Below, piece by piece: positions 2,215-9,270 of a stretch of 64,000 bases of DNA (position 1 is its first letter; every line of letters starts with the position of its first letter). A model generated the notes under the pieces. It saw only the letters and a list, made by a program, of their open reading frames with translations. It had not been told where the DNA came from and ran no database searches. The position numbers were made by a program, and so were the translations under genes. The stretch spans positions 1 to 64,000 of the forward strand of contig CANGYY010000001.1 in assembly GCA_947458585.1 (NCBI GenBank). The letters are read 5' to 3'. The stretch comes from Cyclobacteriaceae bacterium. GTDB taxonomy: Bacteria > Bacteroidota > Bacteroidia > Cytophagales > Cyclobacteriaceae.

Positions 2215-2606
2215 ATCCCATTCCTTATTCCGGATATACCGGTGAATTTTTTTACTCCCCTACAAGGAAGGGAAAAACTCTTTATTATCGGTACAAATTC
2301 CAGGGTTAGTGTTCCTTGGTCAACTTTTAATTTCCAGCATGATTTAGTTGATTTCTGGGTGAATATAGACGTATAAGGGTTGTCTGGATTTCATGGAATA
2401 ACTAGGAGAGTTTGAGAAGGCGTTTCATTCTTACATAGGCTGAATAAAAGCATAAACTGCTCCCAAAAGGCGGGGTACTATTGAAATAAATAATTCGCTA
2501 AAAAATTATTTCCTTTTGAATTATTCAAGTACATTTCTTTCAGTTAAATCACCCAACCTGAATCTTAAAAAAGATGAACAGCACCAGATACTCAAAGAAA
2601 TTTTTG

Positions 2607-2969
2607 ATGAAAAAAATGTTTTTTGTACTTCTTTTTTTGGGTAGTCTACCACTTAGTTTCGCTCAGTCCCGTATAGAGATGTTTGTAGAGAATAGGAAAT
2701 ATGTAAATGACCAAACAGGCTTAGTGTTTCGGTATGGTTACATTTCTTCGCTCAATACTTATGGCGTTACTCTTTCAAATGCTAATTCCAGTGGAATAAA
2801 TTACATTAATTGTTCCAAGGATGTAGCATCTGACGAGTCATATATGATCCTTTCCAATTGCTTTGATCCGAATACAGGATCTGGAGGCTTTTCTAGAGCA
2901 GTTGTTGGTTCAAGAAGGGCGATTCTTTCTTTTTCAGATGGTGAACTTGAGTTCGAATTAGTTGATTAG
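2607..2969 (+). CDS. small secreted hypothetical protein
   Basis: Internal ATG at 2607 gives the signal peptide MKKMFFVLLFLGSLPLSFAQ. No recognisable domain. Confidence 0.6.
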   Translation: MKKMFFVLLFLGSLPLSFAQSRIEMFVENRKYVNDQTGLVFRYGYISSLNTYGVTLSNANSSGINYINCSKDVASDESYMILSNCFDPNTGSGGFSRAVVGSRRAILSFSDGELEFELVD

Positions 2970-3001
2970 TGATTATTAATAACCCTAAATATTTAATCAA
3001 A

Positions 3002-3340
3002 ATGAAAAAAACAGCCCTTTTCCTAGTCGTGTTTTTAGTAGTAGTAAGTTTTGTTTATTCTTCGGCGCCCCTAAATTCAAAGCCAGAATTAACTGCAAAC
3101 AACGCGGAAAGAGTCAACTTTAAAATTAAAGGTACCGGCTCAAAAAATATTGCAGTAACGATTGGGATCGGTTCCCAACCCGGTAGTGGAGCTTGTTGCT
3201 CTGGGGTAAGTCCTTTCACTACGGCTAGTTTTGTGGGTAACGTAGGGGATGTGGTGTATGATGGAAAAACGAGACGGGTAATTACCAAGATTTACAGTGA
3301 AATGAATGGGACAACGATTGATCTTGCGCAGTACTATTAA
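3002..3340 (+). CDS. small secreted hypothetical protein with Cys-Cys motif
   Basis: MKKTALFLVVFLVVVSFVYSS signal peptide, mature part with GSGACCSGVSPFTT. Follows 2607..2969 closely. Confidence 0.6.
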   Translation: MKKTALFLVVFLVVVSFVYSSAPLNSKPELTANNAERVNFKIKGTGSKNIAVTIGIGSQPGSGACCSGVSPFTTASFVGNVGDVVYDGKTRRVITKIYSEMNGTTIDLAQYY

Positions 3341-3401
3341 TTTCAATTGATAAAAACAGAGTTTAAATTGATTGATTTAGACTTCAATTTCATTACCAAA
3401 C

Positions 3402-3432
3402 CAAAGAGACCCGAAAGGGTCCCTTTGTTTAT
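3402..3432 (+). terminator. rho-independent terminator-like hairpin
   Basis: CAAAGAGACCC-gaaa-GGGTCCCTTTG followed by TTTAT. Confidence 0.65.
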
Positions 3433-3467
3433 ATTCACAAATAGTTATTCACTCCAAAAAAAACAGT

Positions 3468-4259
3468 ATGATTAGGAACCATGAAATCGATTACAAAATC
3501 TATGGAGAAGAACTCCAATTTGTTGAAATTGAATTAGATCCCAATGAAACTGCCATCGCAGAAAGCGGCGCCTTTATGATGATGGAAAGTGGCATTGAAA
3601 TGCAAACCATTTTTGGTGATGGAAGCCAGGAGCAATCTGGTGGATTTATGGGCAAATTGTTTAGTGCTGGAAAGCGTTTACTGGTAGGTGAAAGTTTGTT
3701 TATGACTGCATTTACCAATGTAGGCCAGGGAAAAAAGAAGGTAAGTTTTGCATCTGCCTATACCGGAAAAATTATTGTATTCGACCTGAAGCAATTGGGA
3801 GGAAAAATCATCGCACAGAAGGATGCCTTTTTATGCGCCGCCAAAGGAGTAAGCATTGGCATTGAGGTTCAGAGAAAACTGGGTACAGGTATATTTGGAG
3901 GTGAGGGATTTATTATGCAAAAGCTAGAGGGTGATGGACTCGCATTTGCACATGCTGGAGGATACATCGTTGAAAAGGATTTGCAGCCTGGCGAAGTACT
4001 CAAGGTAGATACAGGATGTGTGGTAGCTTATACTGCAGGGGTTGACTTTGATATCGAAATGGTAAAGGGAATTAAGAACTTTATGTTTGGTGGAGAAGGT
4101 TTGTTTTTAGCCGTATTGCGAGGCCCAGGAAAAGTATGGTTGCAGTCCCTTCCCATCAGTAGACTTGCGGGACGTATCATGCAATATGGTGGTACAACTA
4201 GAAAAGAAGAGGGTAGTGTGTTGGGAGGACTCGGTAATTTATTAGATGGCAGAGAATAG
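3468..4259 (+). CDS. TIGR00266/AIM24 family protein
   Basis: YGEELQFVEIELDPNETAIAESGAFMMM...GEGLFLAVLRGPGKVWLQSLP, typical of the AIM24/TIGR00266 family. Confidence 0.9.
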   Translation: MIRNHEIDYKIYGEELQFVEIELDPNETAIAESGAFMMMESGIEMQTIFGDGSQEQSGGFMGKLFSAGKRLLVGESLFMTAFTNVGQGKKKVSFASAYTGKIIVFDLKQLGGKIIAQKDAFLCAAKGVSIGIEVQRKLGTGIFGGEGFIMQKLEGDGLAFAHAGGYIVEKDLQPGEVLKVDTGCVVAYTAGVDFDIEMVKGIKNFMFGGEGLFLAVLRGPGKVWLQSLPISRLAGRIMQYGGTTRKEEGSVLGGLGNLLDGRE

Positions 4260-4278
4260 GATATAAAAGATGCCAACA

Positions 4279-4312
4279 AAAAAGCCCTTCGTAAATGCGA
4301 AGGGCTTTTTTG
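4279..4312. terminator. bidirectional terminator hairpin
   Basis: AAAAAAGCCCTTCGtaaatGCGAAGGGCTTTTTT. Confidence 0.85.
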
Positions 4313-4472
4313 ATTACTGGTAATTGTTCTGCTTGTTTTCAAAGGAAAGTAGGGGTCGATTTTAGCTTGTTTGATTTTTTGAATATCCTCTCCTTTTAGG
4401 TTAATTGGTTTTCAATTTCTAAATACATCTTTGGAAGGTTTATGTTCAATAAATGGTATTTTGAATGCGTAA

Positions 4473-5171
4473 TCATAAAAACACTTTGGCAAATGCCCGA
4501 ACAGGAAAGGTCCCCATTCCTTTGATTTTAGGAGGGATGGCATTGAAGAAAAACCCTTCCTCTGGTAGGTTTTCCAGATTGCATAAATGCTCCACAATTA
4601 AAATTTCGGAGGCCAAAAGCATACTATGTGCCGGTCTTGAGTTTGTTGCCGTATTGTCTAGGTTGTGCGAGTCAATCCCTACCAGTTTCACTCCAGCTTC
4701 CTTCAAAAAAATAGCTGCCTCCTCGGTGAGGTAGGGGTGATGCTCGTAGTAGCGTTCGGTATTCCAATGACAAGCCCATCCCGTATTCACGAGCACCGCG
4801 CGGTGCCTAAGTTCTTTATTTTTGAAATGCTCCGGAGTAATCACTAAGGTTTCAGTAAAGGGCACTCGGACCACAATCCCTTCTAGCTCAGCAAATGCGG
4901 TTAAATCTACCTCGGAAATATCTTTTCCGTCCGCATACCGGTGGAAGGGACAGTCAATGTAGGTCCCTGTATTGCCCACCAACTCTAGCTTCCCGATTTG
5001 AAATTCTGTACCGGCAGCATACTGCTGTCTGGAATCTTCCCGACTCAGGTAATCGCAAATGATCGGTGCAGGCAATCCCTTGTAGGTAACTAATCCCGCT
5101 TCTATGGTATGACTTAGGTCCACCAAACGACCCGAATGCTGACTTTGCTGCATAAATTTAGTTTCCATCAT
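4473..5171 (-). CDS. cyclase family protein (kynurenine formamidase-like fold)
   Basis: VDLSHTIEAGLVTYKG...GNTGTYIDCPFHRYADGKD...VGIDSHNLD; cyclase family pattern with variant motif. Confidence 0.8.
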   Translation of the reverse strand: MMETKFMQQSQHSGRLVDLSHTIEAGLVTYKGLPAPIICDYLSREDSRQQYAAGTEFQIGKLELVGNTGTYIDCPFHRYADGKDISEVDLTAFAELEGIVVRVPFTETLVITPEHFKNKELRHRAVLVNTGWACHWNTERYYEHHPYLTEEAAIFLKEAGVKLVGIDSHNLDNTATNSRPAHSMLLASEILIVEHLCNLENLPEEGFFFNAIPPKIKGMGTFPVRAFAKVFL

Positions 5172-5391
5172 CGAGGGTAAGGGGTACAGGTGGCCTTTCG
5201 CTAGGATCCAAATGGAATCGGCTCTTGGAAGGGTAATGGAAGTAACAAGCTAATCAAAATCAACAAATTCTATAAATTTGGAGAAGTTCATTCTCAAAAA
5301 ACAAAAACCCATTAATCTGAAATTTGGAACACCGGGCTTGTTTTAAGCCCTAATCCTGAACCTATTTCTTTTAAAAATTACTGCTATTCCC

Positions 5392-5835
5392 ATGGAACAA
5401 TCCCTATTCAAAGAACTTTTGGCCCAAAATATTCAAAGCTGCAGCTATGCCTTCGATGCGATTACCGAAGAAAATAGCAGCTCTAGACTGAATGAAACCA
5501 CTGCCTCCGTAGGATTTATCTTTCGGCATGTAGGAGAGACAATGTTACTCTTTGGGTATTTTTTTGGCATTCCGACAGACGGTACCAATACCACGATGGG
5601 CAAGCAAGATACCGGACAGGGCAAGGATCTCAGTACGAGTCGGGAACTACTACAAAAAGGCTATGCCTTGCTGGAGCAGATTATCAATTCCACTCCCGCC
5701 GAAGGCTGGTTCGAGCCTGTGGAAACTCCCTTTTTTGGAACGGTGTCTAAGGCTAGACTATTTTCCCATATCCTCTACCACAACTCCTACCATGCAGGTC
5801 AGATCGCTCTGACGCTTAAGCGGGCATCGAAATAG
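5392..5835 (+). CDS. DinB family protein
   Basis: Four-helix pattern with metal-binding His: FRHVGETMLLFGYFFG and ILYHNSYHAGQIALTLK. Confidence 0.8.
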   Translation: MEQSLFKELLAQNIQSCSYAFDAITEENSSSRLNETTASVGFIFRHVGETMLLFGYFFGIPTDGTNTTMGKQDTGQGKDLSTSRELLQKGYALLEQIINSTPAEGWFEPVETPFFGTVSKARLFSHILYHNSYHAGQIALTLKRASK

Positions 5836-5895
5836 TTTGCATGCCTCAACTCCCAAATAACTTCAATCCGTTTACTTGAATTCCATTCTTTGATT

Positions 5896-8229
5896 ATGTC
5901 TATCCGTACGTTTTGGTTCTGCTGTTTCTTCATGCTACTTCCTAGGATCATCCATGCAAAAGCCCCTGACGCAGCAACCCAATCCATCCAATGCATCACC
6001 GTTTTGGGAATCGCCCAAGATGGGGGCTACCCACAAGCGGGCTGTCAGGAGGAACATTACTTACGTGATTGGAAAGAAGACAAAATCAGCCACGGGCTCA
6101 CAGATCAGATCCGTGGACAAAGCACATTTAAAGCTCAAATCTTAGATAATGCAACCGGGAATCCCTTGGCTGGGGCTACCCTCTTTTTTCCACAGTTGGG
6201 ATTGGGTGGCATTTCGGACGAAAAGGGCTGGGTGTCCGTGGCCGATATCCCCAATGGGACCCACACACTTCTCGTGCAGTACCTAGGCTATGAAACCCTT
6301 CGACTTCGCCTCAGCTTTCCACTAGAAGGTTCCGAACCAGTTGTTTTCAGATTGGAGCAGGAAGAGGAGGAACTCGAAATCCTCTTGGTTCAATCCAACC
6401 GGAGCAGCCGTGTGATCGAAGATGTGCCTACCCGAGTAGAAATTATTGCAGGGGAGGAGCTCTCCGAAAAGGGCAACATGAAACCAGGGGATATCCGAAT
6501 GCTCCTCAACGAGAGTACGGGAATCCAAACTCAGCAAACCTCTGCCACTAGCTACAACTCCAGCATCCGCATTCAGGGGCTAGATGGAAAATATACCCAG
6601 CTACTTCGAGATGGATTGCCACTCTATGCTGGTTTTTCTTCTGGATTGAGTTTGATGCAAATTGCCCCTCTGGACCTCGCGCAGGTGGAGGTGGTGAAAG
6701 GCGCTTCCTCCACGCTCTATGGGGGAGGAGCCATCGCAGGCTTGGTCAATCTGATTTCCAAACGGCCCGAGGAAGAACCCGAGCTCTCATTTTTACTCAA
6801 CGGTACTTCTGCCCGGGGTCTCGATGCCAGTGCCTTCTATGCTGCCAAAGGGGAGAAATTTGGGACCACGGTTTTCACTTCCTTCAACAAAGGGACTGCC
6901 TATGATCCTGCAGGCATTGGTTTGACGGCCATCCCAGAATTTGAGCGATTTACGGTCAATCCCAAACTCTTTTGGGACCTAAATTCCAATACCAATTTGG
7001 TGGCAGGAATCAATTACAGCCAAGAAGATCGACTGGGAGGTTCCATGGACTACATCCAAGGAAAAACTGCTACTGATCCTTACTTCGAGGCCAACGCCAC
7101 CGATAGGATTTCTACCGAACTCACTTTCAAGACCCAATGGGCCGACACCCAGTCCTTGACCTTCAAAAATAGCCTCAACTTGTTTAGCAGGTCAATAGAA
7201 ATTCCAGAATATCAATTCGATGGCAGGCAGGTTTCTTCTTTTTCTGAGATGAGCTGGTCTTCGACAAAGCCCAAATCTTCTTGGATTTCGGGAATCAACG
7301 TCTGGACCGATCGCTTTACGCAAAGCCAGGGTAATCTCTCCAATCCCTTGGATTACTCACTGACGACCCTGGGTGCATTTGTACAAAACATCTGGAATGC
7401 CAACGATAAATGGACCCTAGAATCGGGCTTCCGCTTGGATCATTTGAATACGGAAGGATTTTTTCCTTTGCCAAAACTATCCGCTATGTACACCCCCAAT
7501 GCGGCACTTACCCTGCGAATTGGAGGCGGATTGGGCTATAAATCTCCGACCGTATTCACCGAAGAAACTGAGCGGATTCAATTTCGTAGGGTAGCCCCAA
7601 TAGATTATGGGAAGCTCCAGTCGGAGCGTTCTGCTGGTGCAAATTTGGACATCAACTACCGCTTGGCTTTGGGAGAGGAACTTTCTTTGGTGGCTAACAC
7701 GCTCCTTTTTGTGACACAAATCCAAAATCCCCTGCTGTTGGAAAAAAGTGCCAAGGGATTCGAGTTTGTCCAGCCAGAGGGGAACTTTCAAACCCAAGGG
7801 GTGGAGGTGAATCTGAAGTGGAATTACCGGGATTTTAAACTTTTCACCGGGTACACCCTGGCGGATGTTACGCAGGAGTTTAATGGGCAGAAAAGCCCCT
7901 ATCCGCTAGTAGCTAGACACCGGCTGAATAATGTGTTGATGTTTGAGCAACATGAAAATTTTAGAATCGGACTGGAAGCCTATTATTTTTCTCCACAAGT
8001 GCTCAATGATGGAAGGGAAGGGCAGTCCTACTGGATTTTTGGTTTGATGGGCGAAAAAGCATTGGGAGAGCATTTCTCAGTATTTATCAACTTTGAAAAT
8101 TTTCTTGATGCACGACAAACTCGTTTTGATACCATCTATACAGGAGATCTAAGTAATCCCGAGTTTCGGGATATCTATGCGCCTGTCGACGGATTTGTAG
8201 TCAACGGAGGAGTAAAGTTGAACTTCTAA
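5896..8229 (+). CDS. TonB-dependent receptor with carboxypeptidase-regulatory-like domain and an N-terminal PqqB-like MBL fragment (chimera)
   Basis: CarbopepD_reg-like STFKAQILDNATGNPLAGATLFFPQ, plug IRIQGLDGKYTQLLRDGLPLYAG...VEVVKGASSTLYGGGAIAGLVNLISK, C-terminal barrel. The first ~60 aa match the start of CDS 8323..9270. Confidence 0.9.
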   Translation: MSIRTFWFCCFFMLLPRIIHAKAPDAATQSIQCITVLGIAQDGGYPQAGCQEEHYLRDWKEDKISHGLTDQIRGQSTFKAQILDNATGNPLAGATLFFPQLGLGGISDEKGWVSVADIPNGTHTLLVQYLGYETLRLRLSFPLEGSEPVVFRLEQEEEELEILLVQSNRSSRVIEDVPTRVEIIAGEELSEKGNMKPGDIRMLLNESTGIQTQQTSATSYNSSIRIQGLDGKYTQLLRDGLPLYAGFSSGLSLMQIAPLDLAQVEVVKGASSTLYGGGAIAGLVNLISKRPEEEPELSFLLNGTSARGLDASAFYAAKGEKFGTTVFTSFNKGTAYDPAGIGLTAIPEFERFTVNPKLFWDLNSNTNLVAGINYSQEDRLGGSMDYIQGKTATDPYFEANATDRISTELTFKTQWADTQSLTFKNSLNLFSRSIEIPEYQFDGRQVSSFSEMSWSSTKPKSSWISGINVWTDRFTQSQGNLSNPLDYSLTTLGAFVQNIWNANDKWTLESGFRLDHLNTEGFFPLPKLSAMYTPNAALTLRIGGGLGYKSPTVFTEETERIQFRRVAPIDYGKLQSERSAGANLDINYRLALGEELSLVANTLLFVTQIQNPLLLEKSAKGFEFVQPEGNFQTQGVEVNLKWNYRDFKLFTGYTLADVTQEFNGQKSPYPLVARHRLNNVLMFEQHENFRIGLEAYYFSPQVLNDGREGQSYWIFGLMGEKALGEHFSVFINFENFLDARQTRFDTIYTGDLSNPEFRDIYAPVDGFVVNGGVKLNF

Positions 8230-8322
8230 TTACCGTAGGAAGTATGTTTCTGGATTGGTTTCTTTAAGTCCTAACTAGTGGCATTCGTTCTCCTCTTTAT
8301 TCCCGTCACTAACTGCCTGTTT

Positions 8323-9270
8323 ATGAAAAGATATTTTTATTGGGCTTGCACCCTCTTAGTCCTAGCCCCGATTTTAACAAAGGGCCAAATCACTGCAACT
8401 GAATCAAAGCAATCTCAATACATCACCGTGTTGGGAATCGCTCAAGATGGAGGTTACCCGCAAGCAGGCTGCACAGCCGAGCATTGCTTGCGCCACTGGA
8501 GAGGGGAGGAAGAAAAGCGGCATGTGGTGAGTTTAGGGCTCACGGATCAAGCCAGTGGACAAAACTGGTTGTTTGAAGCGACTCCGGACTTTACATCTCA
8601 ACTCCAGCAACTTCAACAAGCTTCAGGTACCTCCAACCTATCGGGTATTTTTTTAACCCATGCACACATGGGACATTACGCGGGTTTGCTCCAACTCGGT
8701 AGAGAAGCCATGGGAGCCAAAGGAATGCCGGTGTATGTAATGCCTCGAATGAAGGAATTTCTAGAAAAGAATGCCCCTTGGAGCCAATTGGTGGCATTGG
8801 GAAACATCAAACTGATCTTGATGGAGCAAGAAAAATCCATTCAATTGACGCCGACTCTTCGGGTCACTCCTCTGCTAGTTCCGCATCGGGATGAGTTTTC
8901 GGAGACCGTAGGATTTCGTGTCGAGACCAGCGAAAAGAGTCTGTTGTTTATCCCAGACATTGACAAGTGGCCGTTGTGGGAAAAGGACATTCGAGCCGAA
9001 GTAGCTCGGGTAGATGTAGCCTTGCTGGATGCCACCTTCTATCAGGAAGGGGAACTTCCCAACCGGAACATGAGTGAGATCCCGCATCCTTTTGTTGTCG
9101 AAACCATGGCTTTATTTTCTCCGCTTCCAGCTGTTGAAAAACGCAAAGTCAAGTTTATCCACTTCAACCACACCAATCCCTTGATATTGGAAGGTGCTGA
9201 GCGAGATGCTGTCAAAAAGCTAGGCTTTGAGGTAGCTACCGAAGGGGAGCGAATTGTATTGAAGAAGTAA
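8323..9270 (+). CDS. PqqB-like MBL-fold metallo-hydrolase, secreted
   Basis: Signal peptide; ITVLGIAQDGGYPQAGC; THAHMGHYAGLLQLGREAMG (HxHxGH); LLFIPDIDKW; LLDATFY; IHFNHTNPL. Confidence 0.85.
   Translation: MKRYFYWACTLLVLAPILTKGQITATESKQSQYITVLGIAQDGGYPQAGCTAEHCLRHWRGEEEKRHVVSLGLTDQASGQNWLFEATPDFTSQLQQLQQASGTSNLSGIFLTHAHMGHYAGLLQLGREAMGAKGMPVYVMPRMKEFLEKNAPWSQLVALGNIKLILMEQEKSIQLTPTLRVTPLLVPHRDEFSETVGFRVETSEKSLLFIPDIDKWPLWEKDIRAEVARVDVALLDATFYQEGELPNRNMSEIPHPFVVETMALFSPLPAVEKRKVKFIHFNHTNPLILEGAERDAVKKLGFEVATEGERIVLKK

What the first reader, a model, noticed from the sequence alone, without database searches (positions are those of the whole stretch)
5896..6125. TonB-dependent receptor carries a truncated PqqB-like MBL N-terminus, signal peptide included
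Seen directly: the receptor ORF (from ATG 5896) has QSIQCITVLGIAQDGGYPQAGCQEEHYLRDWKED...HGLTDQIRGQ, and the next gene (from ATG 8323) has SKQSQYITVLGIAQDGGYPQAGCTAEHCLRHW...LGLTDQASGQ. In both, exactly 32 residues precede the (C/Y)ITVLG motif, so the homology probably covers the signal peptide too. Right after GQ the receptor switches to a standard carboxypeptidase-regulatory-like domain (STFKAQILDNATGNPLAG...). The two nucleotide copies are clearly diverged (many silent and non-silent changes, one 15-bp in-frame indel), which argues against an assembly duplication. The catalytic HxHxGH part is absent from the receptor copy. This suggests an ancestral MBL-receptor(-MBL) arrangement collapsed into a fusion, giving the receptor the MBL promoter, signal peptide and a ~40-aa periplasmic extension.
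Basis: partly seen in the sequence, partly recalled or inferred. Interest (0 to 1): 0.72.

Follow-up and report, generated by a model that had tools for sequence, protein, structure and literature searches.

The report
Receptor wearing another gene's leader
In a small-genome Algoriphagus-type bacterium, a transferred outer-membrane receptor gene has landed inside an enzyme gene and now begins with that enzyme's export signal plus about 50 decaying residues, while a mosaic working copy of the enzyme follows it: a real, shared, recombination-made gene fusion rather than a new kind of machine.

Summary
The 777-aa receptor ORF (5896-8229) starts with the upstream region, signal peptide and first 75 codons of a PqqB-like metallo-beta-lactamase (MBL), joined in frame exactly where the receptor's own signal peptide should end. 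A second MAG (G014, other project) has the same joint. G005 has the receptor with an ordinary leader. Most relatives have the MBL without the receptor; six of them carry the window's leader type. So it is not an assembly error.

The fused N-terminus is not a copy of the downstream MBL. It is the resident gene's own N-terminus (60-70% aa to relatives' type-1 MBLs, 51% to the downstream one). The downstream MBL is a mosaic: it switches at codons 40-46 from a receptor-linked 5' end to the resident body. Best model: a receptor+MBL-5' segment from a G005-like donor integrated inside the resident MBL, by homology in the conserved ITVLGIAQDGGYPQAGC block on one side and a CAAA microhomology joint on the other.

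What is left is an export-signal and leader swap. The extension is predicted disordered, has lost the second conserved Cys, and has almost fully decayed in G014. Ordinary chemistry, unusually legible case.

The parts
5392..5835 (+). DinB-family gene; marks the resident locus (DinB - type-1 MBL) in relatives
   Evidence: Pfam DinB_2; directly upstream of the type-1 MBL in G013, G021, G008, G074, G096 and of the MBL in G072
5836..5895 (+). Upstream/translation-start region of the resident type-1 MBL, now leading the receptor
   Evidence: W 5836-6120 aligns at 78-82% over 192-231 nt to DinB-MBL intergenic+MBL 5' of six relatives
5896..5991 (+). Signal peptide and mature start (codons 1-32) of the type-1 MBL: MSIRTFWFCCFFMLLPRIIHA/KAPDAATQSIQ
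   Evidence: 78-81% nt to six type-1 MBLs, 43-45% to type-2; no room remains for the receptor's own signal peptide
5992..6120 (+). Remnant of MBL codons 33-75 fused to the receptor; second conserved Cys lost, 15-nt in-frame deletion; predicted disordered
6118..6121 (+). Joint: CAAA shared by the MBL (GTGGACAAAACTGG) and the receptor signal-peptide end (TTGCTCAAACTACC); reading frame kept
6121..8229 (+). TonB-dependent receptor proper: CarboxypepD_reg-like domain, plug, beta-barrel (signal peptide deleted)
   Evidence: Pfam PF13715, PF07715, PF00593; 92% aa to G005, 90% to G014, 78% to G032
8230..8322 (+). Receptor-MBL intergenic region of donor (type-2) origin
   Evidence: W 8230-8440 is 74% over 203 nt to the G005 receptor-MBL junction; no match to the type-1 loci before the conserved block
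8323..8442 (+). MBL codons 1-40, type-2 (receptor-linked) origin
   Evidence: 17 of 20 scorable diagnostic sites type-2; codons 1-35 cluster with G005/G007/G014 at 100/98
8443..8460 (+). Interval that holds the switch of origin (codons 41-46, inside ITVLGIAQDGGYPQAGC)
   Evidence: last type-2 site codon 40, first type-1 site codon 46
8461..9270 (+). MBL body, resident type-1 origin, with catalytic HAHMGH; PqqB-like, Lactamase_B_2
   Evidence: 0 of 33 scorable diagnostic sites type-2; separated from G005/G007 at 100/100; Pfam PF12706
5989..6044 (+). Direct repeat, left copy; partner 8416-8471 (87.5% over 56 nt). Recombination between them would excise the receptor and leave one intact MBL
   Evidence: excision itself is inference

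Best explanation
A receptor gene followed by the 5' end of an MBL gene (the G005-type arrangement) came from another lineage and integrated inside the resident DinB-linked MBL gene. On one side the exchange was homologous, in the highly conserved codons 40-46 of the two MBL genes. On the other side the receptor, cut exactly at the end of its signal peptide, was joined through about 4 nt of microhomology (CAAA) to codon 75 of the MBL. Because the joint lies downstream of the crossover, MBL codons ~40-75 are now present twice. The simplest physical route is one single-crossover integration of a circularised fragment, or a homology-facilitated illegitimate event between sister chromosomes. The result is (i) a receptor exported by the resident MBL's signal peptide and led by its upstream region, with about 52 extra residues before its folded CarboxypepD_reg domain, and (ii) an intact 315-aa MBL with a donor signal peptide and a resident body. 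The extension acts as leader plus spacer: the signal peptide is needed, the MBL-derived spacer mostly is not, and it is decaying. Shown: the chimera, its joint, the mosaic MBL, the younger common descent of the receptor, the relaxed extension. Inferred: a single event, its molecular route, export and expression.
For: Same joint in G014, an independent MAG. Unfused receptor with an ordinary 19-20 aa leader in G005, G032 and large-genome relatives. Unfused MBL with the same leader after DinB in close relatives. Window leader and upstream DNA match resident MBL loci at ~80%, while intergenic 8230-8322 and MBL codons 1-40 match the G005-type locus. Switch at codons 40-46: 17/20 versus 0/33 type-2 sites, Fisher p=3.5e-11; six of seven type-1 controls show no switch, G028 shows partial type-2 character before codon 40. 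Conflicting trees with 100/100 and 100/98 support. Receptor dS window-G005 0.61 against 1.56 for both FtsH and the MBL body. CAAA at the joint, within the 3-10 bp microhomology reported for such events (PMC3240628). ComEC-family competence gene in the genome. Extension: pLDDT 34-41, no secondary structure, while the CarboxypepD_reg domain starts at the joint with pLDDT 86-96. Extension-core dN to MBLs 0.16-0.22 (window) and 0.62-0.70 (G014) against 0.00-0.09 between type-1-bodied MBLs.
Against: The leader of the G014 chimera is closer to the G072-type MBL leader than to the window's, and its upstream DNA is different, so more than one recombination, or later exchange of the leader, is needed. 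The sister genomes G096 and G008 lack the receptor, which requires loss or a separate transfer. Codons 33-50 of the window extension are hardly decayed (1 non-synonymous difference in 18 codons against 12 in the next 25, Fisher p=0.003), which pure decay does not predict; later conversion or some retained constraint is possible. A two-step history is not excluded.
Confidence: 0.72

Rival explanations
1. Two steps: an MBL-receptor-MBL array existed (tandem arrangement after transfer), then a deletion fused MBL-1 codon 75 to the receptor; gene conversion later gave MBL-2 a type-1 body.
For: MBL block conversions are plausible given the near-invariant codons 34-50.
Against: No genome shows the array; it needs a separate conversion that replaces the whole body of MBL-2 from codon ~46 to the end.
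Confidence: 0.2
2. Assembly or binning artefact: the MBL 5' end of one strain was joined to the receptor of another.
For: The window genome is a fragmented draft (113 contigs, 82.6% complete), and the conserved MBL block could mislead an assembler.
Against: The joint has only ~4 nt of shared sequence, too short for a k-mer join; the same joint, independently diverged, is in G014; the window joint lies 6 kb inside a 125-kb contig.
Confidence: 0.02
3. The fused MBL segment has a kept function (for example a metal- or partner-binding periplasmic extension that couples receptor and MBL), and selection holds it.
For: In the window the first half (CITVLGIAQDGGYPQAGC) is nearly intact despite 5-12 synonymous codon differences to MBLs.
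Against: G014 has lost almost all of it (FINLNADQEEDHLQSGC) with the receptor still 90% identical; the second Cys, a His and 5 residues are lost in the window; no predicted fold.
Confidence: 0.06

Closest known systems
Bacteroidota TonB-dependent receptors with N-terminal CarboxypepD_reg-like domain (PF13715/PF07715/PF00593)
   Same: Domain order and length of the receptor proper; orthologues with open frames of 721-754 aa across the genus
   Different: Leader replaced by that of an MBL and about 52 extra residues before the first domain; seen only in G000 and G014
PqqB (TIGR02108; solved as 1XTO, 4Z7R and others)
   Same: The downstream MBL aligns over its whole mature length (E=1.9e-35 to TIGR02108; 3.6e-17 to 4Z7R)
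   Different: 122.8 bits against a 245-bit cut-off, has a signal peptide; a PqqB-like exported MBL, not PqqB
Homology-facilitated illegitimate recombination / single-crossover integration of circularised fragments (PMC3240628); merodiploids by transformation (PMC3784515)
   Same: One homologous side, one microhomology side; duplication of the homologous segment
   Different: Known HFIR usually deletes recipient DNA of similar size; here a ~100-nt duplication. Seen as a fossil, not caught in the act
Chimeric genes by leader (signal-peptide) exchange
   Same: An exported protein acquires another exported protein's leader
   Different: Here donor-like, recipient and recombinant forms survive in related species, so the exchange can be mapped to a few codons

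Membership tests
TonB-dependent receptor | Plug and beta-barrel domains above Pfam cut-offs | tested here: met
   PF07715 65.3 bits, PF00593 68.2 bits, both above the gathering score
TonB-dependent receptor | Cleavable N-terminal signal peptide | tested here: inconclusive
   Hydrophobic core and IHA/K site present; the usual +1 Gln (Bacteroidetes Q-rule, PMC5837995) is Lys here; no signal-peptide predictor available
Metallo-beta-lactamase (receptor N-terminus) | HxHxxH metal motif and alpha-beta/beta-alpha core | tested here: not met
   Only codons 1-75 present, before the HAHMGH motif; no PDB match for the 75 aa; predicted disordered
PqqB (downstream MBL) | TIGR02108 score at or above 245 bits | tested here: not met
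   122.8 bits; MBL fold family PF12706 is met
Homology-plus-microhomology integration product | One homologous breakpoint | tested here: met
   Switch at codons 40-46 of the MBL, p=3.5e-11
Homology-plus-microhomology integration product | Microhomology of 3-10 bp at the other joint | tested here: met
   CAAA; only 4 nt, and measured against present-day relatives, not the ancestors
Homology-plus-microhomology integration product | Incoming DNA from another lineage | tested here: met
   Receptor dS window-G005 0.61 against FtsH 1.56
Homology-plus-microhomology integration product | Single event (not array plus later deletion) | not testable with these tools
   No intermediate seen, but absence in 12 genomes does not exclude one

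The most novel reading that the evidence does not exclude
The locus is a reversible cassette: the leftover direct repeat (5989-6044 / 8416-8471, 87.5%) lets the receptor be excised without a scar, restoring DinB-MBL with its original leader, so populations switch between a receptor-plus-MBL state and an MBL-only state, and the leader of the receptor is kept similar to MBL by repeated exchange. This would explain the patchy occurrence (present in the window genome and G014, absent in sister G096 and in G008) and the oddly fresh first half of the window extension.
Probability: 0.1. Interest if true: 0.55.

Novelty: new variant of a known kind. Interest (0 to 1): 0.42.

Why it matters
It is a well-preserved natural example of how a horizontally moved outer-membrane receptor can survive losing its own export signal by capturing that of the gene it lands in. 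Donor-like, resident and recombinant forms exist side by side in related genomes, so the breakpoints are readable to a few codons. A later form (G014) shows the captured stretch drifting into sequence with no recognisable origin, which is one way unexplained N-terminal extensions of receptors may arise.

Tried and rejected
Assembly artefact (rejected: shared joint, no k-mer overlap). N-terminus as a duplicate of the adjacent MBL (rejected: relatives' type-1 MBLs are closer). PQQ-uptake link between the PqqB-like MBL and the receptor (the receptor hits NF041535 PqqU at 34.4 bits against a cut-off of 1200, like many other receptor models; no support). Receptor neighbourhoods in G032, G067 and G073 gave no common partner. 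rpoB could not serve as species marker because the window genome, G005 and G014 gave no match in their drafts; FtsH was used instead. A first FtsH tree was faulty because strands were mixed and was redone. Full-length receptor model uninformative (pLDDT 29); the N-terminal piece was folded instead (four sequences only). Papers on this chimera: none found in the open library. Chimeras elsewhere in the family: none in 347 genomes, all other hits lie in MBL-sized frames (225-386 aa).

Full report
OBSERVATION. The window belongs to a fragmented draft (2.78 Mb, 113 contigs, 82.6% complete) of a genus whose matching public records are titled Algoriphagus sp. or Cyclobacteriaceae. Pfam gives CarboxypepD_reg-like (from residue 81), plug and barrel for the receptor, and Lactamase_B_2 for the MBL. 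The MBL query finds receptor codons 5-77 at E=8.6e-16, so the resemblance is not chance. Receptor residues 1-75 are MBL-like; the CarboxypepD_reg strand starts right after.

RELATIVES. Twelve same-genus genomes including the window carry close MBL orthologues (82-89% aa), all 315 aa by the homologous start. Type 1 (G008, G013, G021, G059, G074, G096) has leaders like MSIRTIWFCCSLLLLPGISFAQ and sits after DinB, which is cut to its first ~41 codons in G059; none has the receptor next to it. G072 also follows DinB but has a leader of its own (MKISNFWFC...); G028 has a divergent leader and a DinB remnant. Type 2 (G005, G007) has leaders like MKSYNLWYCILFFLVPILTTAQ; in G005 the receptor precedes it, in G007 not. 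The receptor of G005 is unfused, with an ordinary leader (MHRFSLLVLALCFSTLSLA/Q), as in G032, G067 and G073. Only the window and G014 carry the fusion. G014 has MKLSNFWFCLFLLLPPVYSQGQ...LQSGCQE...LDQVTAQ joined to YTYKAQIL at the same position. Searches of 76 genus and 347 family genomes found no other.

WHERE THE PIECES COME FROM. DNA from just after DinB to the joint matches type-1 MBL loci at 78-82%; in the leader it is 78-81% to type 1 and 43-45% to type 2 and to the window's own downstream MBL. The intergenic stretch 8230-8322 and MBL codons 1-40 match G005 (74% over 203 nt). Among 57 sites that separate type 1 from type 2, the window MBL is type 2 at 17 of 20 scorable sites up to codon 40, and at 0 of 33 from codon 46 on (p=3.5e-11). 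G014 behaves likewise (13 of 21, then 1 of 32; p=2.8e-6). Of seven controls treated alike, six show 0-1 type-2 sites before codon 41, and G028 shows 10 of 28. Trees agree: the MBL body is separated from G005/G007 at 100/100, whereas the first 105 nt group the window with G014, G005 and G007 at 100/98 (the script labelled this segment codons 1-38, it is 1-35). The downstream MBL is therefore a mosaic, with its switch inside the near-invariant ITVLGIAQDGGYPQAGC block.

TRANSFER. By FtsH, the window groups with G096, G008 and G014 (100/99), and G005/G007 form another lineage. Synonymous divergence window-G005 is 1.56 for FtsH, 1.56 for the MBL body, but 0.61 for the receptor. The receptor is thus younger in common descent than the genomes. 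A ComEC-family gene is present, so DNA uptake is conceivable; this is not evidence of competence.

MECHANISM. The joint reads GTGGACAAAGCACATTTAAAGC; the MBLs read GTGGACAAAACTGG, and G005's receptor TTGCTCAAACTACCTTTAAAGC. The shared CAAA keeps frame, removes the receptor's signal peptide and nothing more, and keeps the glutamine that was its mature first residue by the Bacteroidetes Q-rule (PMC5837995; the assignment is inference). Because the joint (codon 75) is downstream of the homologous switch (codons 40-46), the MBL codons between are present twice. Single-crossover insertion of a circularised fragment gives precisely this map. In E. coli conjugation experiments such duplications were commoner than true HFIR products, and HFIR joints carry 3-10 bp of microhomology (PMC3240628). 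Merodiploid formation by transformation is another precedent (PMC3784515). A two-step history through an array plus deletion and conversion remains possible.

WHAT THE EXTENSION DOES. There is no other signal peptide left, so export must use the MBL-derived leader (direct reading; not measured). The following ~52 residues have no secondary structure and pLDDT 34-41, while the CarboxypepD_reg domain begins at the joint at 86-96 (shallow alignment). In the window the second conserved Cys is Tyr and five residues are gone. Extension-core dN to MBLs is 0.16-0.22, and 0.62-0.70 in G014, against 0.00-0.09 among type-1-bodied MBLs. Neutral simulation of the stretch at 0.25-0.6 substitutions per site gives 32-59% aa identity and loss of the open frame in 77-91% of runs, so the frame is presumably held open for the receptor while its content drifts. 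Unexplained: codons 33-50 of the window copy are nearly intact (1 of 18 against 12 of 25 codons with amino-acid changes, p=0.003), which suggests later exchange with an MBL allele or residual constraint.

VERDICT. Real, shared by two species, well mapped; an informative case of leader capture by recombination, not a new kind of system.

Noticed in passing
L075 (G059) about 1412-1534; L032 (G028) about 4498-4617; L031 (G014) 902-1285: The DinB gene upstream is cut down to its first ~40 codons in G059 and G028 and is absent in G014, so the stretch in front of this MBL has been rearranged repeatedly.
   Followed up: partly
window 5959-5961 (codon 22): The +1 position after the predicted signal peptidase site is Lys (AAA) where all sampled MBLs have Gln, against the Bacteroidetes Q-rule.
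   Followed up: no
L036 (G005) 2223-5431 versus L037 (G007) 5140-6087: Sister genomes G005 and G007 share the type-2 MBL after the same small upstream gene, but only G005 has the receptor in between: a second presence/absence difference of this receptor.
   Followed up: partly
L031 (G014) 902-1285: The stretch upstream of the G014 chimera matches the DinB-MBL loci of relatives in only short pieces (39 nt near the cyclase start; 56 nt around the start codon to G072), so its origin is open.
   Followed up: partly
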